Source of the DNA: Terriglobia bacterium
GTDB taxonomy: Bacteria > Acidobacteriota > Terriglobia > Terriglobales > Acidobacteriaceae
Direction of reading: 5' to 3'
Assembly: GCA_020073565.1 (NCBI GenBank)
Contig: JAIQEY010000003.1
Span: 124,001 to 188,000, forward strand
Length of the DNA stretch: 64,000 nt
Position 1 is the first letter of the stretch; every line of letters starts with the position of its first letter. Position numbers and translations under genes: made by a program. Shown here piece by piece: positions 8,059 through 58,705 of the stretch. The notes under the pieces were generated by a model. It searched no databases, was not told the DNA's origin, and was given only the letters and a program-made list of their open reading frames with translations.

Positions 8059-8059
8059 G

Positions 8060-32383: not shown

Positions 32384-32400
32384 TGGAGCGACGGGCGTCC
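32384..32400. repeat. Copy of the GGAGCGACGGGCGTCC repeat
   Basis: 17 nt here are identical to 40331-40347 inside the ABC exporter gene. The copy is in the divergent gap between the TPR and acyltransferase genes. Confidence 0.6.
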
Positions 32401-32456
32401 TCGAGCGTCGCCTTTCACCTTGGCCCCACGCCGCCCCGCACGCTACACTCTCGCCC

Positions 32457-36544: not shown

Positions 36545-37852
36545 CTAACGTGGATTCACGTGGCCGGTTCCCACTTTTCTTTCCTGCACGAGAAAGCGCG
36601 CAAACACTTCGTTCGACAACAGACGCCCGCGGGCCGTCAGCCGCACTACGCTTCCCTGTTTTTCCAGCAACCCTTCGTCCGCACACTCTTCGATGACAGG
36701 CTCGCAACTAGCCAGGCTCTCGGCGCCACGCCGCGCGCGAATCCGCTCCAGATCGACGCCGCAATTCAACCGCAATCCCAGAAAGAAGCTCTCCTCCAGC
36801 GCCGCCTGTTCCGACACCGGGGTCACGGTCAGCGCCGCGCGATTCATGTAAGCGTCGAGAGAATCTGGAGTTGAAAAGCGAACCGCCTCGATCCCCGCTC
36901 CATCAGCCCGATTTTCAACTGTCTTTGGGAAGGGCACGGCTTCAGCCGTGCCGAAAGCACCATGCTCAATCAGGGCTTCAGCCCCTGAGGGCCGCCGACT
37001 CTCAGCCGACAGCATCGAGTGCGCATCCACGCCAAACCCGAGATAAGGCTGCCGCGTCCAATACTTCAAGTTATGTCGCGACTCTGCCCCCGGACGCGCG
37101 AAATTAGAAATCTCGTACTGCTCAACGCCCGCGGCATTCAGTGTCTCGCAAGCCTGCTCATAGAAATCCGCAGTAGCTCCATCGTCCGGCACAAAATGTG
37201 CATGATAGCGCGTGCCGCCCGCAATCAGTTCCCGTCCCAGCCGCGAATCCTCATCCACTTCGAGCATGTAGACGCTGGCATGTGGCGCCCCTGCGGCGAT
37301 CATCTCCGCCAGCGAGAACTCCCAACTCGCCGCCGTCTGATGCGGTAATCCCGCGATCAAGTCAATATTGATGTTGACGATCCCGGCCGTGCGCAGCCGG
37401 GCAATCTCCTCTAAAACCGTCGAGCGTTCATGCAAGCGCCCGACCGATCGCGCTTCCTGATCTACGAACGACTGCACCCCCAGGCTCACCCGGTTCACGC
37501 CGCACTGAACGAGAGTCTCAATCAGATCTGGACTGAGCGTCCCCGGAGCGCACTCCACCGTAATCTCGGCATCGGCGGTCAAAGCAAACTCACCCCGCAC
37601 CGCCTCGAAGATTCGAACCAACTGCGACGACTCCAGAATCGAAGGAGTCCCGCCCCCCAAATAAACTGAAGCCGCACCCTGCTCCAACACACCTCCCAGT
37701 TCCGCAACCACCGCCCGCCTCTGGCTTATGTCCTCCAGCACACGAGCGACGTAGTTCTCAAACGCCCCCTTCGAAAAGACGTCGGAAGCAAAGTTGCAGT
37801 AGCTGCACTTGCTTTTGCAGAACGGGACGGAGAGGTAGATTCCCAGGGGCAT
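36545..37852 (-). CDS. hemW: Radical SAM haem chaperone HemW-like protein with repeat insertion
   Basis: A 435 aa protein of the oxygen-independent coproporphyrinogen oxidase-like family; HemW members insert haem rather than oxidise the porphyrin. The CxxxCxxC cluster motif is in PFCKSKCSYCNFA (about 10-22), VYLGGGTPSIL binds SAM, and NINIDLIAGLPHQT is conserved. The C-terminal HemW domain ends near VRLTARGRLLSNEVFARFL. Residues about 288-307 are encoded by the GCTGAAGCC palindromic repeat and interrupt the segment after LGFGVDAHSMLS. The reading frame is kept, so the gene is probably functional. Confidence 0.9.
   Translation of the reverse strand: MPLGIYLSVPFCKSKCSYCNFASDVFSKGAFENYVARVLEDISQRRAVVAELGGVLEQGAASVYLGGGTPSILESSQLVRIFEAVRGEFALTADAEITVECAPGTLSPDLIETLVQCGVNRVSLGVQSFVDQEARSVGRLHERSTVLEEIARLRTAGIVNINIDLIAGLPHQTAASWEFSLAEMIAAGAPHASVYMLEVDEDSRLGRELIAGGTRYHAHFVPDDGATADFYEQACETLNAAGVEQYEISNFARPGAESRHNLKYWTRQPYLGFGVDAHSMLSAESRRPSGAEALIEHGAFGTAEAVPFPKTVENRADGAGIEAVRFSTPDSLDAYMNRAALTVTPVSEQAALEESFFLGLRLNCGVDLERIRARRGAESLASCEPVIEECADEGLLEKQGSVVRLTARGRLLSNEVFARFLVQERKVGTGHVNPR
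36933..36991. repeat. GCTGAAGCC palindromes inside hemW
   Basis: GGCACGGCTTCAGCCGTGCC (36933-36952) and CAGGGCTTCAGCCCCTGAGG (36971-36990) are inverted relatives of 29060-29119. They lie in frame within the hemW coding sequence. Confidence 0.8.
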
Positions 37853-37964
37853 TGGAGGGTTGTATTATCCCATCGTTGAGCGGGTACTGCCGACTTGCAA
37901 AGTTGTTCCTTTCTGGAATAACACAATCTTGGACCTAGGGTCGGGACTGTGATACAAGCGAACC

Positions 37965-39071
37965 GTGGCTCGCAGCAGGATTCCCTTGGTGATGTGTGCT
38001 TTCCTGGTTGGCCTGCTCGCCCAACCTGGGAGAGCTCAAGACAAACCGGAAACCCCGCCGTATCTCCTGCGCCTGGAGCGCATACTTCGTGACAACAACG
38101 TGTGCGCACTGATACGTGCGGATGGACATTTTCATCTGGAAAAGCAGCGCGAGGTCACACGCGTCTTTGAAGGCACCATCCCACAGGTAGACGTCGCGAG
38201 CTTGCAGAACCACCTGAATTCAGATCGCGTTTCGAGACTTTCGCAAGCGCAAATCCGACGTCCTCCGCTCATCCTCAGAAAGCCAGACGAATTGCTCGTG
38301 AGCATTCATCGCGCTGGCGGTTGGCAAGATCTCGTCTTCCCCACCGCAGAAAGTCGGGATGACTACCGAGACGCGCTTGATCCACTTCTCAAACTGCTCG
38401 AAGAACTCCAGAAAGCTCCTCAGACGGAGTTGTCAGAGGACGAAGACCGCAATAACTGCCTACTGCCGGGCAAGATCGAGTTGAAGACGCGCGCTCCGGC
38501 CCGCCCGACGTCCACTCCGGCGCCCCTCGACCCAGTCGAGCCAGGGGTAGCTTTGCCGGGAGCAGTACCGACCGGCACCGACGCCCGCAAGAAAGACCTG
38601 TCGCTGGTTGCGGAACTCACTACCTTCGACGGGGAAACTTTGGACGTAAGCTGTTTTGCCATCTACACCAGCGGACGATTCCATCATGAGAGCAAGTCCC
38701 AAAAAACTAGCGGCAAGACTGTCGCTGTGCTGATTCGCGAGGGATCGGTGGCCCTCCCAGAAATGGAACAACTCACTGCAATCCTCAACGACCCGGCACT
38801 GATGAGCAACACTCCAGAAGAGATCCCCACCAGGCGGGCGCGTCAGTTCGAGATTGCCAAATTGCTTGTCGCCCGCGACAACGGTATGCAGCAAATCGTC
38901 TTTTGGAGCTACGCAGCACGAAGCCTCAGATTCGGCGGGTTACCCGATTTCCGTGACCACGGGATGAAACTCGTACGGCCTCTCCGTAAGTGGCTGAAGG
39001 TCAATGTGGAAGAGAAACCTGCCACCCTGTTACCCGAGACGTCCGCCGACGAATGTGGAATGAAGCCGTGA
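37965..39071 (+). CDS. Exported protein of unknown function
   Basis: I do not recognise this 368 aa protein, read from GTG. A signal peptide (SRIPLVMCAFLVGLLAQPGRA) precedes two similar-looking halves, each with a pattern of an acidic/basic beta stretch followed by helix. Compare ICALIRADGHFHLEKQREVTRVFEG-like text in the first half with VSCFAIYTSGRFHHESKSQKTSG in the second. This suggests an internal duplication of a beta-rich domain separated by a proline-rich linker at about 165-200. Two neighbouring genes face the same way (ABC exporter 66 nt on), but no function follows. Confidence 0.72.
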   Translation: MARSRIPLVMCAFLVGLLAQPGRAQDKPETPPYLLRLERILRDNNVCALIRADGHFHLEKQREVTRVFEGTIPQVDVASLQNHLNSDRVSRLSQAQIRRPPLILRKPDELLVSIHRAGGWQDLVFPTAESRDDYRDALDPLLKLLEELQKAPQTELSEDEDRNNCLLPGKIELKTRAPARPTSTPAPLDPVEPGVALPGAVPTGTDARKKDLSLVAELTTFDGETLDVSCFAIYTSGRFHHESKSQKTSGKTVAVLIREGSVALPEMEQLTAILNDPALMSNTPEEIPTRRARQFEIAKLLVARDNGMQQIVFWSYAARSLRFGGLPDFRDHGMKLVRPLRKWLKVNVEEKPATLLPETSADECGMKP

Positions 39072-39137
39072 TGATGTGAACGCTTTCATCCTCCCTCCCT
39101 GTAAGATCATCTAATGTAGGTATTTCTTGGTTTTGTA

Positions 39138-41147
39138 ATGGCGAACCAGCAGGAAGAAGAAGTCTTAGGCAAAGCGTACGACGGCCGGCTGATGCGGCGT
39201 CTGCTCACCTACCTGCGTCCCTACAAATGGCACGTGGTGGTGGCGCTCGCGGCCATCATCCTGAAGTCTGTGGCTGACGTCCTCGGACCCTTCCTCACCA
39301 AGATCGCCATCGACAAGTACCTCGCCAAGTCGGCCAACTCGCATTCCTGGATCGGTGACCGCCTCAGCGACCGGTCACTCACCGGCATTGCACAAATCGG
39401 CGGCCTTTACATTGGCCTGCTGCTATTCACCTTTGCGCTCGAATTCATCCAGACCTACTTGATGCAATGGACCGGACAGAAAGTCATGTTCGATCTGCGC
39501 AAACAAATCTTTCGCCATCTGCAGTTCATGCATGTCGGCTTCTTCGACAAGAACCCGGTCGGCCGGCTCGTGACCCGCGTTACCACCGACGTCGACGCGC
39601 TCAACGAAATGTTCACTGCCGGCGTGGTCTCAATCTTCGAAGACGTCTTCGTGCTCTTCTTCATCCTTGCCATCATGCTCGACATGAACTGGAAGCTCGC
39701 GCTGATCACTTTCGCCGTGCTTCCGCTCATCGTATACGCGACAAAAATCTTCCGCGACAAGGTGCGTGATTCCTACCGACGCATTCGCACCGCGATCGCC
39801 CGCATCAATTCGTTCCTGCAGGAAGCCGTCTCCGGCATGCTGGTACTGCAATTGTTTAACCGCGAGAAGCGCGCCTTCCGCCAGTTCTCCGACATCAACG
39901 CCTCGCACATGGAGGCGTTCAAAGACGCCATCATGGCCTACTCGGTCTACTACCCGGTGGTCGAGGTTCTGTCGTCGATTGCGGTGGCAGGCATTATTTG
40001 GTTCGGTGGAAATGGAATCATCCGGCACCTCAGCGCCGCAAGCGTCACCCTTGGATTCTCAAGGACAACTCTGCTCACCGTGCACCCCGTGCAGAGCGTG
40101 GTGACGCTCGGTGTGCTGGTCGCCTTCATGCAATATGCGCAGCGTTTCTTCCGCCCGATCATGGACCTCAGCGAAAAGTACAACATCCTGCAGTCGGCTA
40201 TGGCGGCCGGTGAGCGCGTCTTCAAGCTACTGGATACGAAAGTGGAAATCACCTCGCCCGCTATCACCAAACAACCCAAAGGCCCAGGAAGAATCGAATT
40301 CGACCACGTCTGGTTCGCCTATAGTGATCGTGGAGCGACGGGCGTCCCCGCCCGTCCGCTTGAACAGACGGCGGCAGAAGGGGCGGACAAGAGTCTCCGC
40401 CCTACACCCGACTGGGTGTTGCGCGACGTCAGCTTCACCCTCGAACCGGGCGAGACGGCCGCTGTCGTCGGCCACACCGGCGCCGGCAAGACCACGCTGA
40501 TCTCGCTCCTCATGCGCTTCTACGACGTGCAGCAGGGCGCCATCCGGATCGACGGCGTCGATCTCAAAGACATGGATCTCATCGACCTGCGCGGCCGCTT
40601 CGGCGTAGTGCTGCAGGACCCGTTCCTGTTCTCGGGCACAGTTGAGGGCAACATCCGCCTCGGCACCGCCCGCATTCAGGACGAAGACGTCGAGCAAGCC
40701 GCCGAAGATGTCAACCTCGCAGACTTCATCCGCACGCTCCCCGGAGGCTTCAAAGAAGAAGTCCGTGAACGAGGTTCCACGCTCTCGACCGGCCAGAAGC
40801 AGCTCATCTCATTTGCGCGAGCCCTGGCGCACGACCCGAGAATCCTGATCCTCGACGAAGCCACCTCCAGCGTCGATACCGAAACCGAGTTCCGAGTCCG
40901 CGACGCACTCAGCCGCATGGTCGAAGGCCGCACGTCGCTCGTCATCGCCCACCGCCTGTCGACCATCCAGCGCGCCGACAAAATCATCGTGATGCACAAA
41001 GGCCAGGTGCGAGAAATGGGCTCGCACCAGCAACTGCTGGCCCAGCGCGGCATTTACTACAAGCTTTATCAATTGCAGTACAAGGACCAGGAGATTCCAG
41101 CCCCGGTACCGGGCGTTCCGCAGTCCACCGTCAGCGCAGACGACTAG
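39138..41147 (+). CDS. ABC exporter, fused membrane and ATPase domains (MsbA/MdlB-like)
   Basis: Half-size exporter of 669 aa. Six transmembrane helices lie in about 20-330. The ATPase domain has Walker A GHTGAGKTT (about 444-452), the Q-loop VVLQDPFLFSGT, the signature LSTGQKQL (about 548) and Walker B ILILDEATSSVD (about 568). Residues about 398-425 (SDRGATGVPARP to SLRPTPDW), between the FDHVWFAY strand and VLRDVSFTL, are encoded by palindromic repeats and are extra compared with relatives. It probably exports a lipid or drug-like molecule. Upstream of lpxB on the same strand, separated by a small DUF4410 gene. Confidence 0.92.
   Translation: MANQQEEEVLGKAYDGRLMRRLLTYLRPYKWHVVVALAAIILKSVADVLGPFLTKIAIDKYLAKSANSHSWIGDRLSDRSLTGIAQIGGLYIGLLLFTFALEFIQTYLMQWTGQKVMFDLRKQIFRHLQFMHVGFFDKNPVGRLVTRVTTDVDALNEMFTAGVVSIFEDVFVLFFILAIMLDMNWKLALITFAVLPLIVYATKIFRDKVRDSYRRIRTAIARINSFLQEAVSGMLVLQLFNREKRAFRQFSDINASHMEAFKDAIMAYSVYYPVVEVLSSIAVAGIIWFGGNGIIRHLSAASVTLGFSRTTLLTVHPVQSVVTLGVLVAFMQYAQRFFRPIMDLSEKYNILQSAMAAGERVFKLLDTKVEITSPAITKQPKGPGRIEFDHVWFAYSDRGATGVPARPLEQTAAEGADKSLRPTPDWVLRDVSFTLEPGETAAVVGHTGAGKTTLISLLMRFYDVQQGAIRIDGVDLKDMDLIDLRGRFGVVLQDPFLFSGTVEGNIRLGTARIQDEDVEQAAEDVNLADFIRTLPGGFKEEVRERGSTLSTGQKQLISFARALAHDPRILILDEATSSVDTETEFRVRDALSRMVEGRTSLVIAHRLSTIQRADKIIVMHKGQVREMGSHQQLLAQRGIYYKLYQLQYKDQEIPAPVPGVPQSTVSADD
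40331..40402. repeat. Two palindromes inside the ABC exporter gene
   Basis: GACGGGCG/CGCCCGTC (40337-40356) and GGGCGGA/TCTCCGCCC (40381-40402) hairpins in frame. The first continues a 17-nt identity with 32384-32400. The second resembles the intergenic GCGGACA hairpins at 1631 and 62162. Confidence 0.78.
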
Positions 41148-41265
41148 GCATAGTGCTCTGCCGCATCTGACTCCTCTCGCCCCACGCTCACCATCACATC
41201 TAATTCCTGGGCACTAGGAGTATGATTTTCAACGCGAATCAGGTATCCGGGAGGTGCTTTGAAAC

Positions 41266-41757
41266 ATGATCTGCAAAATGTCTAAGGCTGCCTTCGCTTG
41301 CGGGTTGATACTGATTTTCTCCTCAGCCCTGGCCCAGAACACCCCGCCGCTCCGCGGCGTGAAGACGGTTCAGGTCGACCCCACCGTCGTGTCAGATCCA
41401 AAAAAGGTCAAGGAAGAAGCTGCGCCGAATCTTGTCCAGGATAGTCTGAAGAACGCCTTTCGCAGCGCAAATATCGAACTTGGAGATAGCGCTCCGATTC
41501 GCGCGCATATCGTTCTCGATGAATTTTCGTCGGGGAGCATGGCCAAGAGGTTTTGGGTAGGCATGGGCGCGGGGCGCAGCACCGTCACCTGCCAGCTGAT
41601 TGTCCAGGATGCCGCCGGTAAGGAACTCGCGAAAACGAAGATTCACGTTCGCGGGAATCTCGTGTGGAGCCCTTATCAGGGCAACAATACGCAGAGGCGG
41701 CAAGCAGTTTCAAGCTTCGAGCAGAGGCTTCTCGAAGAAATTGAAAAGATGAAGTAG
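41266..41757 (+). CDS. Exported DUF4410-like protein
   Basis: A 163 aa protein with a signal peptide (MSKAAFACGLILIFSSALAQ). The mature part has VQVDPTVVSDPKKVKEEAAPNLVQDSLKNAF, IRAHIVLDEFSSGS and FWVGMGAGRSTVTCQLIVQD, the pattern I associate with DUF4410. It is probably periplasmic or lipid-associated, with no known activity. It sits between the ABC exporter and lpxB, so an envelope role is plausible from context. Confidence 0.75.
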   Translation: MICKMSKAAFACGLILIFSSALAQNTPPLRGVKTVQVDPTVVSDPKKVKEEAAPNLVQDSLKNAFRSANIELGDSAPIRAHIVLDEFSSGSMAKRFWVGMGAGRSTVTCQLIVQDAAGKELAKTKIHVRGNLVWSPYQGNNTQRRQAVSSFEQRLLEEIEKMK

Positions 41758-41866
41758 CGGATACACATATCAATCGTCCAAGTCTTGACTTTGATGGCCG
41801 CTGGCTGAGAACGAGCGGAAACCTGGCTCGTCGGCCAGTTGCTTCGCGCGGCGATACAATTCCCCA

Positions 41867-43084
41867 GTGACGATCCTGATCTCCGCCGGCGAAGCGTCGG
41901 GCGAAATGTACGGCGCGCAACTGATCGAGGCGCTGCGGCGAGCCGCAGGCTCGGACGGCCGAGCCGGCCGTCCCTCCACGAGCATTGACTTCTTCGGCGC
42001 GGGTGGAGACCGCATGCGCGCCGCCGGCTGCGAGATCATCGTCGACGCCAAAGATCTGGCCGTCGTCGGCATCACCGAGATCGTCAGCCATCTCCCGAAA
42101 ATTCTCGGTCTCTACAAGAAGCTCATCCGCGCCGCCGACGACCGCCGCCCCGCGCTCGCCATCGTCATCGATTCCCCTGCCTTCAACTGGCGCGTCGCCC
42201 GCCAGATGCGCAAGCGGGATATCCCCGTCGTCTACTACGTCTGCCCGCAGTTCTGGGCTTGGCGCCAAGGACGCGTGAGACTCCTGCGCAAGTACGTCAA
42301 CAAGGCACTGGTGATTTTCCCGTTTGAAGAGAAGTTCTACCGCGATCGCGGCGTGGACGCGACGTTCGTCGGGCATCCGCTCGCCGACCTGCCCGTCCCA
42401 ACCATCACCCGTGAAGCCTATGCTGCCGAGCACGCGCTCGACGCCGCCAAGCCCTGGATCACGCTCATGCCCGGCAGCCGCCGCAAAGAAGTTCGCATGA
42501 ACCTGCCGACCATCCTCGAGGCCGCCGACCGCCTTGGCCCGGACTGTGAGTTTCTACTCCCCGTGGCACGGACGCTCGAGCCTCAATTCCTGAAACATCT
42601 GGTGGAGACGCGGTTTCCCGCGTCTCCCCAATCGGGCGCACAGCTCGGCACGGAGACGGGACAAGCCCCGCCTCTACGGAGCATTTGCCTCGTTCCCGAA
42701 GCTCTCCCCGCGCTCTACCACTCCCGCGCCGGAATCGTCGCCAGCGGGACCGCCACGGTCGAAGCCGCCCTCATGGGCACGCCGTTCGTCATGGTCTACC
42801 GCGTCTCGCCGCTGACCTACGCGCTCGGCAAGCCGCGCATCAAGGTTCCTTACTACGCAATGGTGAACCTGATTGCCGGTGAAGAAGTCGTCCCCGAGCT
42901 CGTGCAAGGCAAATTCACAGCCGACAACATCGTCGCCGAGCTGGCCAAAATCATCCCCGACGGTCCACCCAGACAGGAAATGCTGCGAGGTTTGAAATCG
43001 GTGCGAGAAAGACTGAAGCAGCCAGACGGCGATCAACGTCCGGCAGATCGCGCTGCCGAGATCATCACGGACATGCTGCTGTGA
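41867..43084 (+). CDS. lpxB: Lipid-A-disaccharide synthase with two repeat-encoded inserts
   Basis: GT19 enzyme joining UDP-2,3-diacylglucosamine and lipid X into the lipid A disaccharide at the inner membrane. It is 405 aa from a GTG. Conserved parts are ISAGEASGEMYGAQLI (4-19), DSPAFNWRVARQMRK, YYVCPQFWAWRQGRV, FVGHPLAD, MPGSRRKEV and SGTATVEAALMGTPFVMVYR. Two stretches look extra: AGSDGRAGRPST at about 28-39 and about 245-272. Both coincide with palindromes of the dispersed families (41953-41973, 42604-42627). The frame stays open through both, so the enzyme is probably active. Confidence 0.94.
   Translation: MTILISAGEASGEMYGAQLIEALRRAAGSDGRAGRPSTSIDFFGAGGDRMRAAGCEIIVDAKDLAVVGITEIVSHLPKILGLYKKLIRAADDRRPALAIVIDSPAFNWRVARQMRKRDIPVVYYVCPQFWAWRQGRVRLLRKYVNKALVIFPFEEKFYRDRGVDATFVGHPLADLPVPTITREAYAAEHALDAAKPWITLMPGSRRKEVRMNLPTILEAADRLGPDCEFLLPVARTLEPQFLKHLVETRFPASPQSGAQLGTETGQAPPLRSICLVPEALPALYHSRAGIVASGTATVEAALMGTPFVMVYRVSPLTYALGKPRIKVPYYAMVNLIAGEEVVPELVQGKFTADNIVAELAKIIPDGPPRQEMLRGLKSVRERLKQPDGDQRPADRAAEIITDMLL
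41953..41973. repeat. Palindrome in lpxB, first
   Basis: GGACGGCC/GGCCGTCC with a 5-nt loop, in frame near the start of lpxB. Related to the intergenic hairpin at 56923-56944. Confidence 0.7.
42604..42672. repeat. Palindromes in lpxB, second
   Basis: GGAGACGCGG/CCGCGTCTCC (42604-42627), a perfect 10-bp stem, is followed by GAGACGGGACAAGCCCCGCCTC (about 42652-42673). The first is nearly identical to the intergenic hairpin AGAGACGCGGC/GCCGCGTCTCT at 55902-55925. Confidence 0.8.
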
Positions 43085-43195
43085 CGTATCTTCTCCCGAC
43101 TGACCGGCGTCAAATTTATGTCACCCTTGTCCTCCCAGCATCTTTTGCGGGAAAATCAACATCATACGAATTGTGATCCTCCCAGGAGAATCTAC

Positions 43196-45205
43196 TTGAC
43201 GCTCTTCTACACTCGACCCATGGGTCGGGCGCTCTATTCGTTTCTAATTTTTTCGCTTTCCTTACTTGCCTCGCACACTGCGTCTGCGGCCGAGAAACCT
43301 CGCCTGCGGGTCGACGACTGTCAGATTGACGCCGAACTCCTGCCCCAGACCCACAAGATCACGGCGCGCGCCACCGTCAAAGTCACCGCGCTCGATGACC
43401 TCAGCGTCGCCACCTTTCAGCTGAACAACGGCCTCCGCATCACCAAGCTGACCGACGCCAACAACAAGCCGCTCACTCCCGAACGCAACACGCAGGACTC
43501 AACCGTGCGCTTCGGGCTGACCAGCGGCCTTGCCAAGAACGCCAGCACCTCGTTCACCTTCGAATACGAAGGCACGCTTGAAACCGCGGACGACAGCCCC
43601 GTTCAAGGGCTCAAGCTTGCCTACGTCGGCCCCGACACCAGCTATCTGCTGTACTCCGGCCTGTGGTTCCCGATCGCTGGCTACGGCACGAATCGCTTCA
43701 CTTCGACCATCAGCGTCACTGTCCCGGCGCACATGATCGTCATCGGCAGCGGGAAAGAACCTGTCACTGCCACCGTCACCAGGAAGCCCGCCGTCGCAAA
43801 CTCCAAGACCTTCACCTTTGCCTGGGACAAACCCAGTTTCCCGGGCACGATCATCGCCGGTACGTTTCAGGAATTTAAAAGCGACGAAGCCGGCCTCGAT
43901 TTGCACGTGTTCTTCAAACCCACGCACAAAGACCTGGGCGCTGAATACGCCTCGACGGCCGTTAAGGAGTTCACTTACTTCGTCACGCAGTACGGCAACG
44001 CCCCTTCGACGACTCTGAAGATTGTCGAACTTCCCGATGACACCGTGCCCTCGGCATGGGCTCCGGAAATCGCGGCTGTCGCAGGCCGTGCGATCACGGA
44101 AAAAATCAACTACCGCCTGCTTGCTAACACCATTGCACACCAGTGGTGGGGCGTGTTGGTCAGTCCCGCGTCAAAAGACGATTGGTGGATCAGCGACGGC
44201 TTCTCGCGCTACTCGGAGGCACGATATGTCGAGAGCGCTGCCGGTCGCGCCGGCCTTGAGGAAATGGTGAAGGACATGTCGGTGGGCGCGCTTGCCTACG
44301 ACAGTGTGCCTCTTTCCAGCGCCGCCAAGCTCGACTATTTTTCGCCGGAATTTCAGTCGCTTGTCACCGACAAGGGCGCCATGATCCTGCACATGCTGCG
44401 CTGGGTACTCGGCGAAGATAAGTACCTGAAGGTCATGCGCGACTTCGCGACCAAGTTCGGCGGCAAACCCGCCTCCACCGACGACTTCCGCGCGCTTGTC
44501 GAACAAGTCTATGGCGAGAAGTTGACCTGGTTCTTCTCGCAGTGGATGGATTCCACCAGCGCCCCCGAATTCAAAACCAAGTACACGGTGTACCGGCTCG
44601 GCACCAACAAGGGTTTCCGCGTGGTCGGTGCCATCACCCAGGACCTCGACCTGTTCCGCATGCCCGTCGATCTGCGCATCGATACCGACGGCAAAACGGA
44701 AGAGAAGCGCATTGACGTCGTAGGCACCGATTCGCCCTTCACCATCGAGACCTTTGGACGCCCGCGGCGCATCGTGGTCGATCCCGATAATCGCGTGCTC
44801 ACCAACTCCGCCGACATCAAGCTGCGCTCCTCGATCCTGCGCGGACAGGGCTTGATCCAGCAAGGCGATCTGGCCGGAGCACTGAGCGAGTTCAACAAAG
44901 CTCTCGAAGTAAACAAGAACAGTTCGCTCGCACATTACCGCATCGCCGAAGTGTTCTATCTGCAGCGAAACTACCAGGCCGCGGCCAATGCCTATCGCGA
45001 GTCACTTAACGGTGACGGCGAGCCCCGTTGGACCGAAGTCTGGAGCCACTTGCAACTCGGCAAGATCTTCGACGTCACCGGGCAGCGCGAGCGCGCCGTG
45101 AATGAATACCGCCAGGCCGTCCAGACCAACGACAACACTCAGGGCGCGCTGGACGAAGCGCGTAAGTACCTGCAAAAGGCCTACGAGCGGGAAAAAGGTA
45201 ATTAG
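43196..45205 (+). CDS. M1-like pseudopeptidase with C-terminal TPR repeats, exported
   Basis: A 669 aa protein. The TTG at 43196 has AGGAG 7 nt upstream and yields a good signal peptide ending near SHTASA. An aminopeptidase-N-like N-terminal beta domain (about 25-220) precedes the catalytic-like domain. The expected HExxH-x18-E reads N311-T-I-A-H315 and D334 (IAHQWWG, WWISDGFSRYSE). No GxMEN-type motif is visible. Two of three zinc ligands and the catalytic glutamate are changed, so hydrolysis is unlikely. Two or three TPR units fill about 540-665. Possibly a binding or assembly factor for envelope proteins; it follows lpxB. Confidence 0.82.
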   Translation: MTLFYTRPMGRALYSFLIFSLSLLASHTASAAEKPRLRVDDCQIDAELLPQTHKITARATVKVTALDDLSVATFQLNNGLRITKLTDANNKPLTPERNTQDSTVRFGLTSGLAKNASTSFTFEYEGTLETADDSPVQGLKLAYVGPDTSYLLYSGLWFPIAGYGTNRFTSTISVTVPAHMIVIGSGKEPVTATVTRKPAVANSKTFTFAWDKPSFPGTIIAGTFQEFKSDEAGLDLHVFFKPTHKDLGAEYASTAVKEFTYFVTQYGNAPSTTLKIVELPDDTVPSAWAPEIAAVAGRAITEKINYRLLANTIAHQWWGVLVSPASKDDWWISDGFSRYSEARYVESAAGRAGLEEMVKDMSVGALAYDSVPLSSAAKLDYFSPEFQSLVTDKGAMILHMLRWVLGEDKYLKVMRDFATKFGGKPASTDDFRALVEQVYGEKLTWFFSQWMDSTSAPEFKTKYTVYRLGTNKGFRVVGAITQDLDLFRMPVDLRIDTDGKTEEKRIDVVGTDSPFTIETFGRPRRIVVDPDNRVLTNSADIKLRSSILRGQGLIQQGDLAGALSEFNKALEVNKNSSLAHYRIAEVFYLQRNYQAAANAYRESLNGDGEPRWTEVWSHLQLGKIFDVTGQRERAVNEYRQAVQTNDNTQGALDEARKYLQKAYEREKGN

Positions 45206-45208
45206 TTA

Positions 45209-45285
45209 TTGGCTCTTGGCTCTTGGCTCTTGGCTCTTGGCTCTTGGCTCTTAGCTCTTAGCTCTTAGCTCTCAGCTCTCAGGGA
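45209..45285. repeat. Heptanucleotide tandem array
   Basis: Eleven 7-bp units: six TTGGCTC, three TTAGCTC, then TCAGCTC and a partial TCAGGGA. The gradual change of unit along the array suggests slippage growth with drift. It separates the M1-like gene from the toxin-antitoxin pair. Related units are seen at 2066, 49977 and 59726. Confidence 0.9.
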
Positions 45286-45317
45286 GGACGATGGGTTTGT
45301 GGTAGGATAACAGTAGT

Positions 45318-45551
45318 ATGAAAGAGAAGACTTCCATCACACTCTCAACCGATGTCCTTGCCGGCATCGACCGCCTGGCTGGATCGAAGCGCTCGCGTTC
45401 GGCCGTCATCGAGCACGCCCTGCGCCGCTATTTGAAGGAACACGCGCGCACCCGGATGCAGGCACGCGATCTCGAGCAACTCAATCGTGCGGCCGACGAA
45501 CTCAATGCCGAAGCGGCCGATGTGCTCGACTACCAGATCGCCGAGAGTTGA
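45318..45551 (+). CDS. Ribbon-helix-helix antitoxin
   Basis: A 77 aa DNA-binding protein. The N-terminal [38 protein letters not shown]-type pattern is a MetJ/Arc ribbon-helix-helix, with the beta strand at 4-9 and the helices at about 11-19 and 28-41. The acidic C-terminal tail would wrap the toxin. It starts 33 nt after the heptanucleotide array and ends 7 nt before the MazF-like gene, a standard antitoxin-first order. It most likely represses its own promoter. Confidence 0.88.
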
Positions 45552-45558
45552 CCGGGCG

Positions 45559-45882
45559 ATGCGACGAGGCGACCTCTATCGCGTTTCGAAGCCTGGTGGC
45601 GACCCCAAGAGTTCACGGGTATTTGTGGTGGTCAGCCGGCAGGTGCTGCTCGATTCCCGTTTTTCAAGCGCTATCTGTGCCCCGATATTTTCCAGCGGTC
45701 AGGGACTCTCAACGCAGGTGGCTATAGGCATTGAAGAGGGGTTGAAGCACGATAGTTGGATCATGTGCGACAACCTGGTCTCGCTGCGCAAGGCAGATTT
45801 GACGCAGTTCATCGGCAGTCTTCCGGCCGTTAGACTCGCCGCGTTGAACCGGGCTCTGAAGATGGCGCTCGATCTGGACTAA
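45559..45882 (+). CDS. MazF/PemK-family toxin
   Basis: A 107 aa putative mRNA endonuclease. [20 protein letters not shown] gives the GD and R residues of the fold's first strand region, followed by [25 protein letters not shown] and [19 protein letters not shown], which align with the conserved PxxS/T and D-Q-I-R-like portions. The ATG at 45559 is chosen to follow the antitoxin. It forms a type II module with the ribbon-helix-helix gene and converges on ppa with only 3 nt between the stops. Confidence 0.87.
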
Positions 45883-45885
45883 GCC

Positions 45886-46440
45886 CTACCCGGCCACACC
45901 CTTGAATCCCTTGCGCCGCTGCTCGCTGTAGCGGTGCAGAGCGTCCTCGATGATCGGATAGGCCTCCGTGGCGGGGCGGATCTCGTCCACCTCGACCGAC
46001 TTCCCCTCCAGTTGTTTGTAGTCCTGAAAGAAGCGGCGCAGCATGATGAGGCGGTGGGGCGGCATCTCCGCGGCCTCGCGGTAGGAATTGAATTCCGGAT
46101 CTTCGGTGGCGATGGCGATGATCTTGTGGTCCTTCTTGCCGGAATCGATCATCGTCATCAGCCCAATCGCGCGCGCGTGGATGATGGTTAGCGGCACCAC
46201 TGTTTCCTGGCACAACACGAGCACGTCGATCGGGTCATCGTCCTCAGCGAGGGTCTGCGGGATGAAGCCGTAGTTGGCAGGATAGTAAACCGCCGAGTAC
46301 AGCACCCGGTCGAGTTTGATGAGGCCGCTGTCCTTGTCGAGTTCGTACTTCACGCTCGACCCGAAGGGGATCTCGACCACCGTGTTGAATTCCTGCGGGA
46401 GCTTGCTGCCGGGGGTAACGTCGTGCCAGGGATGGATCAT
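45886..46440 (-). CDS. ppa: Inorganic pyrophosphatase
   Basis: Soluble family I pyrophosphatase of 184 aa, hydrolysing diphosphate and pulling biosynthetic reactions forward. Characteristic text: VVEIPFGSSVKYELDKDSG, YPANYGFIPQTLAEDDDPIDVLVL (metal aspartates in the EDDDPIDVLV core), and MIDSGKKDHKIIAIATEDPEF. It is complete and ordinary. The 3-prime end meets the toxin gene tail to tail. Confidence 0.96.
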   Translation of the reverse strand: MIHPWHDVTPGSKLPQEFNTVVEIPFGSSVKYELDKDSGLIKLDRVLYSAVYYPANYGFIPQTLAEDDDPIDVLVLCQETVVPLTIIHARAIGLMTMIDSGKKDHKIIAIATEDPEFNSYREAAEMPPHRLIMLRRFFQDYKQLEGKSVEVDEIRPATEAYPIIEDALHRYSEQRRKGFKGVAG

Positions 46441-46618
46441 GGTTGCGGCCTGCCTTTACGATTGCGGGGTATGCCACCGATTAGGCATTGTAAATGCAAC
46501 AGGATAAGCAAGAGGTGGGTAAAGCGTGCTGCTCTGGGGTGGGGAGGTTCAGAATTTCGGGCATCTTGACCCCAGCCCCGAGCAGCGCGTACAGTTTTTA
46601 ATCAGGGTGAGGTGTTTT

Positions 46619-47104
46619 ATGTCGAGTGAAACCAGCAGGTATCTGAAATTCGGCGCGGTGATGGTATTGATTTTGCTTTCACTCGGCTACCTGGCATACA
46701 CGGGTGTGCAAGACAGCAAGAGCTACTACGTCACCATCAAGGAACTAAACGGGCTGGGCGACCGTGCCTACTCCAAGCGCCTGCGCGTTGCCGGTAACGT
46801 GGTGCCGGGCTCGATCAAACGCTCGGGAACGCGCGTGGAGTTCCTGCTGAAGGAAAATGACTTGACGCTGCCGGTTTCCTACACCGGAACCGAAGCTCCG
46901 CCTGACACTTTCAAGGACGACTCGCAGGCCTTGGCCGATGGCAGTTTCGGCCGCGATGGCGTTTTCCACGCCAAGGGACTGCAGGCCAAGTGCGCTTCGA
47001 AGTACGCTCCCAAGCCCGGGCAGCCGGGCGTTGCTCCCGCGGCTGAACCCGCCAAGAGCGTGACGCAGAACCAGACCTCGGGCTCGAGCGGGATGGCTGA
47101 CTAA
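46619..47104 (+). CDS. ccmE: CcmE-type haem chaperone, cysteine (CxxxY) variant
   Basis: Membrane-anchored periplasmic haem carrier of 161 aa. A single N-terminal helix (about 10-28) is followed by an OB fold with VAGNVVPGSIKR, VSYTGTEAPPDTFKDDSQALADG and FHAKGLQAKCASKYAPK. In classical CcmE the last segment is LAKHDENY with a haem-binding histidine; here it is C125-A-S-K-Y129, the CxxxY type known from some archaea and Desulfovibrio. The ATG at 46619 is preferred to an open frame back to 46526. It is the first gene of ccmEABCD, 11 nt before ccmA. Confidence 0.88.
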   Translation: MSSETSRYLKFGAVMVLILLSLGYLAYTGVQDSKSYYVTIKELNGLGDRAYSKRLRVAGNVVPGSIKRSGTRVEFLLKENDLTLPVSYTGTEAPPDTFKDDSQALADGSFGRDGVFHAKGLQAKCASKYAPKPGQPGVAPAAEPAKSVTQNQTSGSSGMAD

Positions 47105-47115
47105 GATCGATCCGA

Positions 47116-47786
<671 letters not shown>

Positions 47787-47790
<4 letters not shown>

Positions 47791-48488
47791 GCCAGGCATC
47801 TGCGGTCACACGAGATCCCGTGCGCGGCATCACGCGCGCCACGCTGCTGAAAGACCTTCGGCTCGAATGGCGCTCCAAAGATGCCATCAACTCGATGCTG
47901 TTCTTCTCGTTGCTGGTGGTCGTCGTTTTCAGCTTTTCGTTTGATCCCAGTGCAGAAGAGTCTCGGCAGATCGCGGGGGGCTTGATCTGGGTGGCAATCT
48001 TGTTCGCGGCCGTGGTCGCCTTAAACCAAACATGGGCGCGCGAGTTGCGCAACCAGGTGCTGGACGCATATCGGGTTTCGCCCGCGCCTGCCAACTCCCT
48101 GTTTCTGGCGAAAGCCATCGGCAATTTCGTATTCGTCACTGTGCTCGAAGCACTTATGACCCCACTGTTCATCGCGTTCTACCGGTTGCGTGCGTTGGGT
48201 CCGGCATGGCAATTGCTGGTGGTTGCGGCGCTGGGAACGTGGGCGCTGGTGGTGAACGGAACCTTTTTTGCCGCGATGTCGATCCGCACACGCAGCCGCG
48301 AGATCATGTTGCCCTTGTTACTGTTTCCGATTGCGATTCCGGCCATCCTAGCCATGGTGCAGGCGACGACTGCGATCCTGACAGGGGAATCGGGGGCCCG
48401 CTTCTGGATCGTGTTGCTTGGGACCTACGATCTGGTGTTTACTACCAGCTGTTTGCTCTTATTCGAAACCGTGTTGAATGCGGAATGA
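47787..48488 (+). CDS. ccmB: Haem exporter membrane subunit CcmB
   Basis: Integral membrane partner of CcmA and CcmC, 233 aa with about six helices. The opening TRATLLKDLRLEWRSKDAINSMLFFSLLVVVVFSFSF and later ELRNQVLDAYRVSPAP and RTRSREIMLPLLLFPIAIP are typical of CcmB. It overlaps ccmA by 4 nt and ccmC by 11 nt. Confidence 0.92.
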
Positions 48489-49206
48489 AGAGTTTCGAGA
48501 AACCTTGAAACTTATGAAACGAACCTTCCCTATCCTCGGCATCCTGACCGCGATTCTGCTGAGCTACGCGTTGTACCAGGCACTGGTGGTAGCGCCGACC
48601 GAACAGACCATGGGCGACGTGCAGCGGATTTTCTACTATCACGTACCCTCGGCGTGGACCGCGTTCATTCTCTTCTTTGTTAATTTTGGCGCTTCCATCT
48701 ACTACCTGATCAAGCGCAACCCAGCGGCCGACATCGTGGCTCTGGTGAGCGCGGAAGTGGGAGTGGTGTTCTGCACGATCGTGCTGGTAACGGGCCCGAT
48801 CTGGGCGCGCCCGGTCTGGGGCATCTGGTGGACATGGGACATGCGGCTGACCTCAACGCTCGTCCTGTGGCTCATCTACGTGAGCTATCTTTTCCTGCGG
48901 CGCTTTTCGGCCGGCGGACAGACCCCAGCGCTGGCAGCAGCGCTGGCGGTTTTTGGCGCGCTCTGTGTGCCGTTTGTCTACTTCTCGATCTGGTTCTTCC
49001 GCACCCAGCACCCGCAGCCGGTGATGGGCGGAGGCGGTTCGATTGATCCGCGCATGATGCACGTGTTGCTGATCAACTGGCTGGCGTTTTCCTGCTTCGC
49101 GTTCCTGGTGTGCTGGTCACGCTACCGGCTGGAAAAATTGCAGCGCGAGGTGGATGAAGTTCATGCTCTTGAATCCCTGAAGGATGTCCCCAGGAGCGCA
49201 CGATGA
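48478..49206 (+). CDS. ccmC: Haem exporter protein CcmC
   Basis: Six-helix haem-handling protein that loads haem on CcmE. It is 242 aa, with the tryptophan-rich signature PVWGIWWTWDMRLTS (about 114-128) and flanking histidines in FYYHVPSAWT and FRTQHPQPV that would bind haem. Translation may begin at 48478, overlapping ccmB by 11 nt, or at the ATG at 48514. It is followed by the tiny ccmD-like gene with a 4-nt overlap. Confidence 0.94.
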   Translation: MRNEEFRETLKLMKRTFPILGILTAILLSYALYQALVVAPTEQTMGDVQRIFYYHVPSAWTAFILFFVNFGASIYYLIKRNPAADIVALVSAEVGVVFCTIVLVTGPIWARPVWGIWWTWDMRLTSTLVLWLIYVSYLFLRRFSAGGQTPALAAALAVFGALCVPFVYFSIWFFRTQHPQPVMGGGGSIDPRMMHVLLINWLAFSCFAFLVCWSRYRLEKLQREVDEVHALESLKDVPRSAR

Positions 49207-49331
49207 TGGGAAACACTTATCTGTTCGCAGCGTATGCGGCGGCCTGGATCATCCACATTGTGTACCTCTCGACCATCGTTTCGCGGTATTCGCGGCTGAA
49301 GCGCGAGATTGACGAATTGAAAAAGAAGTAG
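49203..49331 (+). CDS. ccmD: CcmD-like small membrane protein
   Basis: A 42 aa protein. The helix LFAAYAAAWIIHIVYLSTIV (about 7-26) is followed by a basic tail with RLKREIDELKKK. CcmD proteins are single-span, poorly conserved and needed for release of holo-CcmE from CcmABC. The ATG overlaps the ccmC stop (ATGA), which supports reality and coupling. It ends the operon visible here; ccmF, ccmG and ccmH are absent from the window. Confidence 0.8.
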   Translation: MMGNTYLFAAYAAAWIIHIVYLSTIVSRYSRLKREIDELKKK

Positions 49332-49612
49332 CCAGAAGTCAGTAGCCAGCAAGCCCCTCGCTGCAAATCGTCGATTACTGACTACCGTCTACTTTCCTTA
49401 CAACCATTTTCCCCTCCCCGCGCTTCATACAGGGCGGCGCTAATCCCTGCTTGGCTTGACAGGGTATCTCCCAGATGTAAAAGTATTTGTTTGCTTTAAT
49501 CCCAGTTCTGGTGACAGGTACGCATCCGCTTGCTTAGGGCGTCGAGCCGCTGTGGTGTTTGTGTGCCGTTCTTGTTCTCATTCCACGAAATTGGGACATC
49601 GGAGGAGCGTTC
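49332..49612. other. Gap with degenerate short repeats
   Basis: No convincing gene. AGTCAGTAGCCAGCAAG (49336) and TTACTGACTACCGTCTACT (49375) are imperfect inverted heptanucleotide-like units similar in style to the ends of the element at 8745-8929. The promoter of the SBBP gene is expected at the right end. Confidence 0.4.
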
Positions 49613-52600
49613 GTGAATCGGAATGGCCATGTTTTCAGGTCTCAGGGGGCAGGTCTCAGGGCTCAGGAATCAGCGGTTGGGTCTCAGGAGCCAGGTCGCA
49701 GGTCGCAGGCGCGCGGGACTGGGCGGCCGTTCATCGCTCTGCTTCTCGTGGCGATGGTCATCGGGACCGGTGTTGCTGTCTATTTAGCCCCCGGAACACA
49801 TCTCCGAAAAGCCGCCACGTCAAAACCTGGCCCTCAGCAGGCCGTTTCCAGTGTGTCGGTGCCGCTGTTCTTTGAACCCAATCTGGGCCAAACTGACCCG
49901 CAGGTCAAATTCCTGGCGCGCGGGAGCGGCTACGGCCTGTTCCTGACCGCCGATGAGGCGGTGCTTGAACTACGGCATTCAGCACTCAGCACTCAGCACT
50001 CAGAATATGGCTTTCAGCTTTCAGCCGTCAGCTCTCAGCATGCTCCCGATTCAGTGATTCGGATGAAGCTGGAGGGTGCGAACGCTCCCGCTCGCGTAGC
50101 GGGCGCTTCGCCTCTACCGGGAACGAGCAACTACTTTATTGGGAACGATCCTTCCAAGTGGCGTCACGGCATTCCACAGTTTGCACGGGTCGAGTATCAG
50201 GCCGTTTATCCGGGCGTGGATCTGGTTTACTACGGCGACCAGGGACAACTTGAATACGATTTCCGCATCGCGCCCGCCGCGGACCCGAACCAGATTGCTC
50301 TGCGTTTCGATGGCGCTTCGGCGCACATTGACTCGGGCGAACTGATTCTCTCGACCGATCAGGGCGATGTGCGCTTTCACGCGCCGCACATGTATCAGCG
50401 GGATGGAAATGCTCGGAAGACGATCGCGGGAAGCTTTCGGCAGATCGCCGAAAACAAAATCGGATTTACGATTGGGGACTATGATCGCAGCGGCGAACTG
50501 GTGATCGATCCGGTGCTGAGCTATTCGACGTACTTGGGTGGATCGAACGACGAGTCGCTCGTGCATGTGGCCTTCGGTCCGGATGGCAATATCTATCTGG
50601 CGGGCTCGACGATGTCGTCGGATTTTCCGACCAGCGCGACCAATCCACCGTTCCAGGCGGGTCTTGGGGGCCCGAGTGCGCAGAACATCTTCATCGCGGT
50701 GCTTAATCCCAATGTGCAAGGCTTGGCGCAACTGGTCTATGCGACCTATCTCGGCGGCTCGCTGTCTGATTCTGCGGCCGGCATCTCAGTCAGTTCCAAC
50801 GTAGACGCGGGGACCACGGGCAACGACGTGTATGTTGCCGGCTCGACCACCTCCCCTGACTTCCCTACCAGCAGCGTGAACACTCCGTTCCAGGCGGGGC
50901 CTCAGTCCGGAACCCACGGCTTTGTCACGCGGCTGAATTGGAAATCCAACACCCTGCGGTACTCCACCTACCTCGCCGGCAATGGAATCGATACGGTGAC
51001 CGGACTAGCGATCGATACGGTGGGAGACGCCTTTGTCACTGGAATCACGACCTCGACCAGCGATGTAAGCAATGGATTCCCGGCCAATAGCAACGGTTTC
51101 CAGACGGTGTCGCATGCACCCAGCCAGTTCTTCGCGAGCAAGATCAACACGAAGGGGACTGGCAGCTTGAGCATGCTTTACTCCACCTACTTTGGCGGGG
51201 GGAACCCGCAGTCCGGGACTACCCAGGGAGGCGGCATCGCGGTAGACGCCTCAGGCAACATGTACATCACCGGTGGGACGAACTTTCTAGGGGCGACGGG
51301 AGGAAACGGGGAGGCTCCATTTCCGCTCTTCAACGCACAGCAGAGCTGTCTTGACGAAGCCGGAAAGACGGCCAACTGTGCGAATAACTCCACCGCGCTG
51401 GACGCTTTCGCCGCCAAGATCAATCCAAAGATCGCCGCTTCTCCCCCTGTCTACTCCACCTACCTGGGAGGCGAGGGTGACGATATTGGCTATGGCATCG
51501 CGGTCGATTCCGCTGGCAGTACGTATGTGACCGGTTCGACAACCTCCTCAGGCTGGGTCCCGCCGACGTCCATCGCTCCGTTTCAACCTTGCCTCAATAA
51601 CGCGAGCCTTACCACGCCCTGCACATCTAGCATAGGCACCGACGCCTTCATCGCGAAGATTGGAAACCCTGGGTCGGGAACCTCGTTCCCGCTGACCTAC
51701 TTCACGTACCTGGGCGGATCCGGTACGGACGTGGGCCAGGCGATCGTGGTGGATGCGAATCAGGCGGCTCACGTCGCCGGTTCTACCAATTCGTCTAATC
51801 TGAACTTTCTCAACCCCCTGTCGGGACAGGTGTGCGCCCAGAACAATGCCAACGACGCCATGGTTGCGCTGATTTCGACAACGTTTTCTGGTCGTCCTAC
51901 GACCAACACGAGCGGTGATTACCTGACTTGCCTGGGCGGAAGTGGGGACGATCAGGGCCTGGGAATCGCACTCGACTCGAACAACGCGACCTATGTGAGC
52001 GGCATCACCAACTCCTCGACCGACTTTCCCACCACGCCCAACCCGTACCAGTCGCAGCTGAATGGGTCGCACTACGATGCGTTTGTAAGCAAGTTGGGCG
52101 CCAGCAGCGATCTAACCTTGACGATCCCTACCACCAGTCCATCTCCCAACCCGGTGGCCGCGGGGAACCAGGTTGCGTTCACGTTTGACATCGTGAACGG
52201 CGGACCCGACACGGCCACAACCGTGATCTTCACCGCAACGATTCCTTCGACCGGCGTCGGTTCGCAGTCGGCCAAGGTTACCAGCGGCAGTGGTTCGTGT
52301 GGGGGCGTGGTGGGGCAAACTACGATTACCTGCACGATCGCGTCGCTGGCCGCGGGCGCGACCGGCATCGTCGAAGTCGATTTGACGCCGACCATTCCGG
52401 TGGTGAACCCGCAGATCACCGGCGTATCGGGTACCGTCAGCGCGAACGGTGGCCCCGTTCAGGCGACGGCGAACCAACCGCCGGCGAACATCACCGACTT
52501 TGCAATCAGCGCCACCGCTCCAGCCGTCATCACCGCTGGGCAGACTACCAGCACCATCGTCACGCTGGCTCCGAATCCGACGTACACCGCGTCGATCTCA

Positions 52601-55887: not shown

Positions 55888-55901
55888 CGCGAACCCGGTG
55901 T

Positions 55902-55925
55902 AGAGACGCGGCTCGCCGCGTCTCT
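55902..55925. repeat. REP-like hairpin after the flotillin gene
   Basis: AGAGACGCGGC/GCCGCGTCTCT, an 11-bp perfect stem with a 2-nt loop. The same hairpin class occurs in lpxB at 42604-42627. Confidence 0.75.
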
Positions 55926-58633: not shown

Positions 58634-58674
58634 CGCGGGCAAGTTGCCCGCGCGACAGCCGGCGAGACGCCGGC
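58634..58674. repeat. Two REP-like hairpins
   Basis: CGCGGGC/GCCCGCG (58634-58652) and GCCGGCG/CGCCGGC with loop AGA (58658-58674). The second is the twin of 8042-8058. They precede the SDR gene. Confidence 0.75.
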
Positions 58675-58705
58675 GCTACCGATTTCCTGCTACAAATAAT
58701 GACTT

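What the first reader, a model, noticed from the sequence alone, without database searches (positions are those of the whole stretch)
36545..50122. Intergenic palindromic repeats have entered conserved genes in frame
Hairpins of the same families that fill the gaps of this window lie inside lpxB (41953-41973 and 42604-42672), the ABC exporter (40331-40402), hemW (36933-36991) and the SBBP gene (about 50080-50122). Examples: 42604-42627 matches the intergenic 55902-55925; 40331-40347 is identical over 17 nt to 32384-32400; hemW repeats the two-module arrangement of 29060-29119. In each case the frame stays open and the peptide looks extra compared with the family. This resembles the palindromic elements of Rickettsia genes, but in a free-living bacterium, and could be a source of new loops in essential proteins.
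Basis: partly seen in the sequence, partly recalled or inferred. Interest (0 to 1): 0.8.

Follow-up and report, generated by a model that had tools for sequence, protein, structure and literature searches.

The report
Selfish hairpin repeats inside protein loops
In a group of soil bacteria, short hairpin repeats that normally sit between genes have landed again and again, without breaking the reading frame, in the same few loops of core enzymes, so that the loops now carry peptides written by what look like mobile repeats.

Summary
In relatives (Ca. Sulfotelmatobacter and kin, Acidobacteriota) the same loops are empty in outgroups and many species, and filled in others with different repeats in both orientations. 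LpxB loop 1 is filled in 48 of 96 rows; 36 of 48 inserts recur outside the three genes, against 22 of 144 control pieces. Filled/empty changes 22 times on the tree, at least 5 of them forced by well-supported branches. A repeat core has 34, 48 and 123 copies in three filled genomes, 7 and 16 in two empty ones, control 0. The own genome has 60 copies of a GTAG-tagged REP, inverted copies of which flank a Y1 transposase gene and which also lies inside PriA and RNase R genes. Best reading: REP-like elements, probably moved by RAYT/TIRYT-type transposases, are tolerated where they enter flexible loops in frame. In-frame REPs were known (Rickettsia, O. terrae and others); recurrent many-family loop hot spots look new. 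Translation and neutrality are inferred.

The parts
41867..43084 (+). lpxB (lipid-A-disaccharide synthase), host gene with two in-frame repeat inserts
   Evidence: NCBIfam TIGR00215 257 bits over cut-off 190; solved-structure matches 5w8n, 5w8s
41942..41983 (+). LpxB insert 1 (about residues 26-39), hairpin 41953-41973, in the loop between helix 8-27 and strand 41-45 of the model (model numbers are one less than protein numbers)
   Evidence: empty in the 11 same-order outgroup rows of the tree; filled in 48 of 96 rows; 36 of 48 inserts found again outside the three genes, control 22 of 144
42604..42679 (+). LpxB insert 2 (about residues 247-271), hairpin 42604-42627, low-confidence loop between helix 238-248 and strand 272-275 of the model
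   Evidence: relatives hold GAGACGCGGCAAGCCGCGTCTCTAC, whole or decayed; 5 of 20 inserts found again against 10 of 60 controls, weak; pLDDT about 50
39138..41147 (+). MsbA-like ABC exporter gene, host gene
   Evidence: best NCBIfam hit MsbA_lipidA 426 bits, below its cut-off 602
40326..40409 (+). in-frame double repeat in the exporter between WFAY and DWVLRD: hairpins at about 40333-40361 and at 40381-40402
   Evidence: 29 of 59 inserts found again, control 19 of 177; 18 changes of hairpin state on the tree; outgroups have WFAYHDEDWVL-type loops
36545..37852 (-). hemW, host gene
   Evidence: NCBIfam TIGR00539 238 bits over cut-off 205; best stretch ends at residue 284, where the insert begins
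36893..36997 (-). HemW insert (about residues 286-320): two-module palindromic element
   Evidence: same composite at 29060-29128 and in a CHAT gene in L261; other sequences at the same site in L032, L114, L115, L056; 6 of 13 inserts found again against 1 of 39 controls
49979..50038 (+). heptad-repeat, non-palindromic in-frame insert in the SBBP gene
   Evidence: 16 residues missing in G010 L202; same repeat class as intergenic 45204-45282
29060..29128 (.). intergenic copy of the two-module element of hemW
32384..32414 (.). intergenic copy related to the exporter's first hairpin
   Evidence: 17 nt identical, 84% over 31 nt
55900..55925 (.). intergenic GTAG-tagged hairpin of the LpxB-2 family
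8042..8063 (-). GTAG REP copy (GTAGCGCCGGCGNNNCGCCGGC)
   Evidence: G000:C98:132042-132063
58658..58679 (-). GTAG REP copy
   Evidence: G000:C98:182658-182679

Best explanation
These are REP-like palindromic repeats, in several unrelated families, that spread mainly between genes and now and then land inside them. Where a copy enters a flexible loop or interdomain linker and leaves the frame open, it is translated as roughly 10-70 extra residues and tolerated; the same permissive loops of LpxB, the exporter and HemW have therefore been filled repeatedly, in both orientations, and the copies later decay. Shown: dispersed repeats, in-frame inserts, presence/absence, recurrence at the same loops, and flanking of Y1 transposase genes by such palindromes. 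Inferred: mobilisation by the RAYT/TIRYT Y1 transposases, translation of the inserts, and near-neutrality.
For: Insert DNA found again outside the three genes: LpxB-1 36 of 48 (control 22 of 144), ABC 29 of 59 (19 of 177), HemW-B 6 of 13 (1 of 39). Hairpins of 8 bp or more: LpxB-1 32 of 49 inserts (control 25 of 205), ABC 30 of 50 (17 of 221), HemW-B 7 of 12 (1 of 50), LpxB-2 8 of 23 (8 of 101). Element A in both orientations, among clear matches, at LpxB-1 (21 and 6) and at ABC (6 and 7). Tree of 95 LpxB rows: 22 empty/filled changes, at least 5 forced by starred branches; the 11 same-order outgroup rows and L018 (same family) are empty; ABC 18 changes over 73 rows. Among insert sites seen in two or more rows, hairpins occur in two LpxB loops, three HemW sites, and in ABC the one NBD loop plus the C-terminal tail (2 of 16 rows); an exporter indel at 296-320 in 36 of 73 rows has none. 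Element-A core copies 34, 48, 123 in three genomes whose LpxB-1 holds it and 7, 16 in two whose LpxB-1 is empty (five genomes chosen by me), reversed control 0; GTAG REP 60 copies in the own genome, control 0. Inverted repeats (score 18 or more) flank 16 of 36 Y1 loci and 0 of 150 random own-genome genes. By reading, the C52 gene is flanked by the GTAG REP that also lies in PriA, RNase R and a PF04452 (RsmE-type, name recalled) gene; the C67 gene is flanked by the repeat that lies in a Methyltransf_28 gene. Several inserts fall between Pfam matches: both RNase R inserts, MutY-like, PriA, FAD/Fe-S.
Against: No transcript or protein data. LpxB-2, HemW-A and HemW-C inserts are not clearly above control (5 of 20 against 10 of 60; 1 of 8 against 1 of 24; 9 of 59 against 15 of 177); HemW-A has hairpins in 2 of 10 (control 2 of 43) and HemW-C in 4 of 9 (5 of 40). 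In-gene repeat families were not clearly commoner in transposase flanks than in random gene flanks: 18 of 36, or 11 of 36 without self-matches to transposase code, against 77 of 300; the C52 gene itself scored only 10 in the inverted-flank test, where its frame was read stop to stop. So the transposase link rests on two families; no transposase flank was found for element A. Tag test: 20 of 78 intergenic stems have a G[TG]AG foot, background 0.088; most lack it. Half of the LpxB tree's inner branches are open (46 of 92), and recombination could inflate the changes. 'In frame' is partly by construction, since rows were open frames; two genus genomes (G014, G018) have LpxB matches split over frames, away from the two loops.
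Confidence: 0.85

Rival explanations
1. The inserts have been taken into service: the loop peptide, or the mRNA hairpin, modulates the host enzyme, and selection keeps one reading frame per orientation.
For: At LpxB-1 the clear element-A copies use one frame per orientation (20 of 21 and 6 of 6) although all six frames of the consensus are open. In other genes, 3 of 3 interior same-strand element-A copies use the frame giving GQPGAAV or GQPMAAVPT, and 3 of 3 interior same-strand GTAG copies use one frame.
Against: Different unrelated repeats fill the same loop and many relatives lack any. The exporter insert compared between G000 and G010 has dN 0.183 and dS 0.294, against 0.038 and 0.328 in the rest of the gene (only 18 changes in the insert). 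At ABC 6 of 7 reversed but only 1 of 6 forward element-A copies are in the LpxB frame, though those forward matches are weak. Opposite-strand GTAG copies use two frames (PriA QPAGRRRYA, FAD/Fe-S DSRRGAGATV), and copies near called starts use others. Shared descent or a fixed target phase could give the frame bias.
Confidence: 0.1
2. Ordinary loop-length variation in GC-rich genes, in which hairpins and shared words arise by chance.
For: Perfect stems are hardly enriched inside genes genome-wide (36 against 30.8); LpxB-2, HemW-A and HemW-C matches are near control.
Against: Shared words of intergenic DNA and gene interiors 154 against 8 and 16; exact 22-nt cores with 7-123 copies and control 0; the exporter indel at 296-320 has no hairpin in 36 rows.
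Confidence: 0.03
3. Assembly or metagenome-binning artefacts, or pseudogenes.
For: The 80 named LpxB records are MAGs by their titles; the window's genome has 6% contamination.
Against: 48 distinct LpxB rows, window included, are filled with open frames; 39 aligned LpxB share a long list of invariant residues; exporter dN far below dS outside the insert.
Confidence: 0.02

Closest known systems
Intragenic GTAG/CGTC REPs (PMC3733652; passages and sections 15-16 read)
   Same: REP palindromes in frame inside conserved genes of free-living bacteria (O. terrae, Thauera, Thioalkalivibrio; Xanthomonas recB at about the same site); often dimers; GTAG tag; RAYT association
   Different: Here the same loops are hit repeatedly across a genus by several families and in both orientations, including a two-module element. 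Sections 15-16 name no Acidobacteriota gene with a REP inside; Additional file 3 could not be read.
Rickettsia palindromic elements, RPE (via PMC2229807, passages read)
   Same: Palindromic repeats between genes and in frame inside conserved proteins; for gmk the insert is translated and the enzyme active
   Different: RPE are given as 105-146 bp; these are units of about 20-70 nt in free-living soil bacteria, some associated with Y1 transposases. RPE sequences were not compared.
RAYT/REPtron and TIRYT/TIRtron elements (PMC3733652 section 16)
   Same: Y1 transposase genes flanked by inverted copies of dispersed palindromes; the paper names an acidobacterial TIRYT group
   Different: Sections 15-16 do not report TIRtron repeats inside protein genes; here the C67-type repeat lies inside a Methyltransf_28 gene
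Bacterial MITEs fused in frame (Correia, ERIC, YPAL; PMC2229807 passages)
   Same: Small non-autonomous repeats with open frames fused to genes
   Different: MITEs there are about 100-200 bp, mostly with TIRs; target-site duplication was not tested here

Membership tests
REP (GTAG type) | Short palindrome, many copies, mostly between genes | tested here: met
   60 copies of GTAGCGCCGGCGNNNCGCCGGC with up to 1 mismatch (44 exact), reversed control 0; 22 of 30 examined exact copies intergenic
REP (GTAG type) | GTAG or GGAG tetranucleotide at the stem foot | tested here: inconclusive
   Met by the GTAGCGCC family by its pattern; overall 20 of 78 intergenic stems, background 0.088
REPtron (RAYT) | Y1 HUH transposase gene flanked by copies of the repeat in inverted orientation | tested here: met
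   C52 gene for the GTAG family, by reading (copies at C52:93598 and 94246, gene match at 93936). Not shown for element A or the hemW element.
TIRtron (TIRYT) | Y1 transposase gene flanked by long inverted repeats that also occur dispersed | tested here: met
   16 of 36 transposase loci against 0 of 150 genes; the C67 repeat also lies inside L231:17784-18935
RAYT-mobilised element | Transposase moves the repeat | not testable with these tools
   Needs biochemistry or experimental evolution
Rickettsia palindromic elements | In-frame presence in unrelated conserved genes, with intergenic copies | tested here: met
   lpxB, hemW, exporter, PriA, RNase R, PF04452, UbiD, MutY-like genes
Rickettsia palindromic elements | Sequence similarity to the described RPE families | not tested
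   No RPE sequences fetched
MITE | Target-site duplication | not tested
   Insert borders are blurred at LpxB-1; no duplication was sought

The most novel reading that the evidence does not exclude
A few loops of core enzymes act as recurrent docking sites for selfish DNA across a whole genus, and selection filters the reading frame: element A in LpxB is read almost only in the frame that gives small-residue peptides (AELRSAGQPGAAVPTQ, or HVGTAAPGCPAERSSA when reversed). The repeats thus supply a shared repertoire of ready-made harmless linkers to unrelated proteins.
Probability: 0.3. Interest if true: 0.78.

Novelty: new variant of a known kind. Interest (0 to 1): 0.62.

Why it matters
It gives a natural experiment with dozens of filled and empty alleles of core enzymes, so two questions become testable: does selfish DNA supply new protein segments, and how much frame and sequence selection acts on it. 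It also warns annotators that repeat-derived peptides (AELRSAGQPGAAVPT, HVGTAAPGCPA, GHDFSRA, CHPERSEG) in Acidobacteriota proteins need not mean homology.

Tried and rejected
Rfam scan of the window at gathering thresholds gave no match. A perfect-stem census as the main genome-wide test was too weak inside genes and its result against the reading is reported. The bulk test of in-gene repeats in transposase flanks failed; only the inverted-flank test and specific families support the link. HemW-C used a poor length threshold (59 of 66 counted as filled); one search uses 9 of 66. Stem counts by mismatch were spoiled by a counting error and are not used. A supposed exporter-LpxB fusion in G004 runs through an assembly gap. 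A literature search for PERSEG listed only unrelated words. The orientation labels in the tree come from a loose pattern; orientation is taken instead. The Foldseek rmsd for LpxB is large (21 A); I take this to reflect domain arrangement and use only the local loop assignment from the model.

Rows dropped or partial: one search kept the best 80 of 193 LpxB loci; identical proteins, copies of the window and frames under 300 residues were removed (96 LpxB rows left); the tree has 95 rows, 2 'short' ones not counted. One search counts 48 and one search counts 49 LpxB-1 inserts because the length thresholds differ. HemW (70) and ABC (73) sets still hold some genomes twice (for example L154/L115, L162/L125, L147/L054). 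One search examined 30 of 60 GTAG places and 30 of 228 element-A places. One search used 30 fetched Y1 loci plus 6 own-genome stretches; the own C115 match was left out. One search showed 8 rows.
Full report
WHAT WAS CHECKED. The window lies in contig C98 of a 6.1-Mb draft genome; its LpxB relatives carry titles such as Ca. Sulfotelmatobacter, Acidobacteriaceae, Terriglobales and Terriglobia. The hemW element (a CAGGGGCTGAAGCCC module, a spacer, GGCACGGCTGAAGCCGTGCC and the tail CTTCCCAAA) is a composite also present at 29060-29128 and inside a CHAT-domain gene of the same genome (domain). The SBBP hairpin is family sequence; a heptad repeat 42-101 nt upstream accounts for 16 residues that the close relative G010 lacks.

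PRESENCE AND ABSENCE. LpxB relatives show an empty form of loop 1 (IEALRRRDPSLEFFG and the like, 45 nt) in outgroups and many ingroup species, and filled forms in 48 of 96 rows. Fillings include element A forward (AELRSAGQPGAAVPTQ), element A reversed (HVGTAAPGCPAERSSA), both together (L074), and other hairpins. The solved LpxB 5w8n lacks both window inserts. The exporter loop after WFAY and HemW residues 286-320 behave alike. The window and its close relative G010 (L032) hold different sequences at the same HemW site. Rows were taken as open frames, so frame-breaking insertions would be missed; G014 and G018 have LpxB matches split over frames, away from the two loops.

ARE THEY REPEATS? Insert DNA was searched in 1.43 Mb from which the three genes had been masked. 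Found again: LpxB-1 36 of 48, control 22 of 144; ABC 29 of 59, control 19 of 177; HemW-B 6 of 13, control 1 of 39. LpxB-2 (5 of 20 against 10 of 60), HemW-A (1 of 8 against 1 of 24) and HemW-C (9 of 59 against 15 of 177) were not clearly above control. Whole-genome counts of the element-A core: 34, 48 and 123 in genomes with LpxB-1 filled by element A (L052, L074, L076), 7 and 16 in genomes with it empty (L062, L045), control 0 in the five genomes, which I chose.

GENOME-WIDE. In 1,196,917 nt of the own genome (940 genes from an own hexamer caller), intergenic DNA matches gene interiors 154 times against 8 and 16 in two controls. Genes hit include RNase R, PriA, a PF04452 methyltransferase (RsmE-type, name recalled), UbiD, a MutY-like protein (HhH-GPD plus a sub-threshold NUDIX match), an FtsX/MacB protein, an FAD/Fe-S protein and a Methyltransf_28 protein. 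Several inserts lie between Pfam matches (RNase R residues 213-230 and 703-720; MutY-like 233-242; PriA 210-234; FAD/Fe-S 762-790). Perfect stems are enriched between genes (78 against 3.4) but not clearly inside them (36 against 30.8). Of 30 exact GTAG copies examined, 22 were intergenic, 4 interior, 3 near a called start and 1 near an end; of 30 element-A copies, 17 intergenic, 5 interior, 8 near a start, where the true start is unsure.

RECURRENCE. On a LpxB tree built without the insert columns, empty/filled changes 22 times; well-supported branches force at least 5, and half of the inner branches are weak. The exporter's hairpin state changes 18 times. Among insert sites seen in two or more rows, hairpins occur in two loops of LpxB, three sites of HemW, and in the exporter the NBD loop plus the C-terminal tail (2 of 16 rows). 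The exporter indel at residues 296-320, in 36 of 73 rows, has no hairpin and serves as an internal negative control. In the LpxB model the inserts occupy the loop after helix 8-27 and a loop at pLDDT about 50 before strand 272-275.

FRAME AND CONSTRAINT. All six frames of the element-A consensus are open, yet at LpxB-1 the clear copies use one frame per orientation (20 of 21 forward, 6 of 6 reversed); the copies are not independent. At the exporter loop 6 of 7 reversed copies use the LpxB frame but only 1 of 6 forward ones, on weak matches. Interior same-strand copies in other genes keep to one frame (element A 3 of 3, GTAG 3 of 3), while opposite-strand GTAG copies and copies near called starts use others. 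The exporter insert shared by G000 and G010 has dN 0.183 and dS 0.294, against 0.038 and 0.328 for the rest: weak constraint, from 18 changes.

MECHANISM. The own genome has 9 Y1 transposase matches. Inverted repeats flank 16 of 36 Y1 loci (from several genomes) and 0 of 150 random own-genome genes. By reading, the C52 gene is flanked by the GTAG REP that also lies in PriA, RNase R and PF04452 genes, although it scored low; the C67 gene is flanked by the repeat that lies in the Methyltransf_28 gene. A bulk comparison of in-gene repeats with transposase flanks showed no clear excess (18 of 36, 11 of 36 without self-matches, against 77 of 300), and no transposase is assigned to element A or to the hemW element. 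Mobilisation by RAYT/TIRYT proteins is therefore an inference, strongest for two families.

RELATION TO THE KNOWN. In-frame REPs in free-living bacteria and acidobacterial TIRYT transposases are in PMC3733652 (passages and sections 15-16 read). RPE inserts, with an active gmk enzyme, are reviewed in PMC2229807 (passages). Small variable segments inside genes are in PMC2884548 (passages). Other papers were seen only in search listings. Among the papers listed, searches showed none on recurrent loop hot spots or on in-frame REPs in Acidobacteriota; longer result lists were not seen in full, and subscription journals and supplements were not searched. Hence a new variant of a known kind.

Noticed in passing
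window 45204-45282 and 49979-50038: Tandem heptads (GCTCTTG/GCTCTTA/CAGCACT class) between genes recur in frame in the SBBP gene; a non-palindromic repeat class that also enters genes.
   Followed up: partly
exporter residues 296-320 (window 40023-40097) and relatives: An indel present in 36 of 73 rows and free of hairpins; origin unknown.
   Followed up: no
L120, L116, L125 (HemW site after residue 372): CHPERSEG repeat peptides, in L120 and L116 chained with GHDFSRA, in one HemW loop; up to 69 extra residues at this site.
   Followed up: partly
L012 / L150 (G004 contig C172): Apparent exporter-LpxB fusion frame of 1032 aa runs through an assembly gap (N); probably an artefact.
   Followed up: yes
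L187, L184, L199: Y1 transposase genes flanked by inverted copies of CCCACTTCTCG/CCCACCCTTGCG/CCCACTCAACG-type palindromes, resembling the largest hairpin families of the own genome.
   Followed up: partly
L246:6494-9184: RNase R gene with repeat inserts at two interior places plus further repeats near its start.
   Followed up: partly
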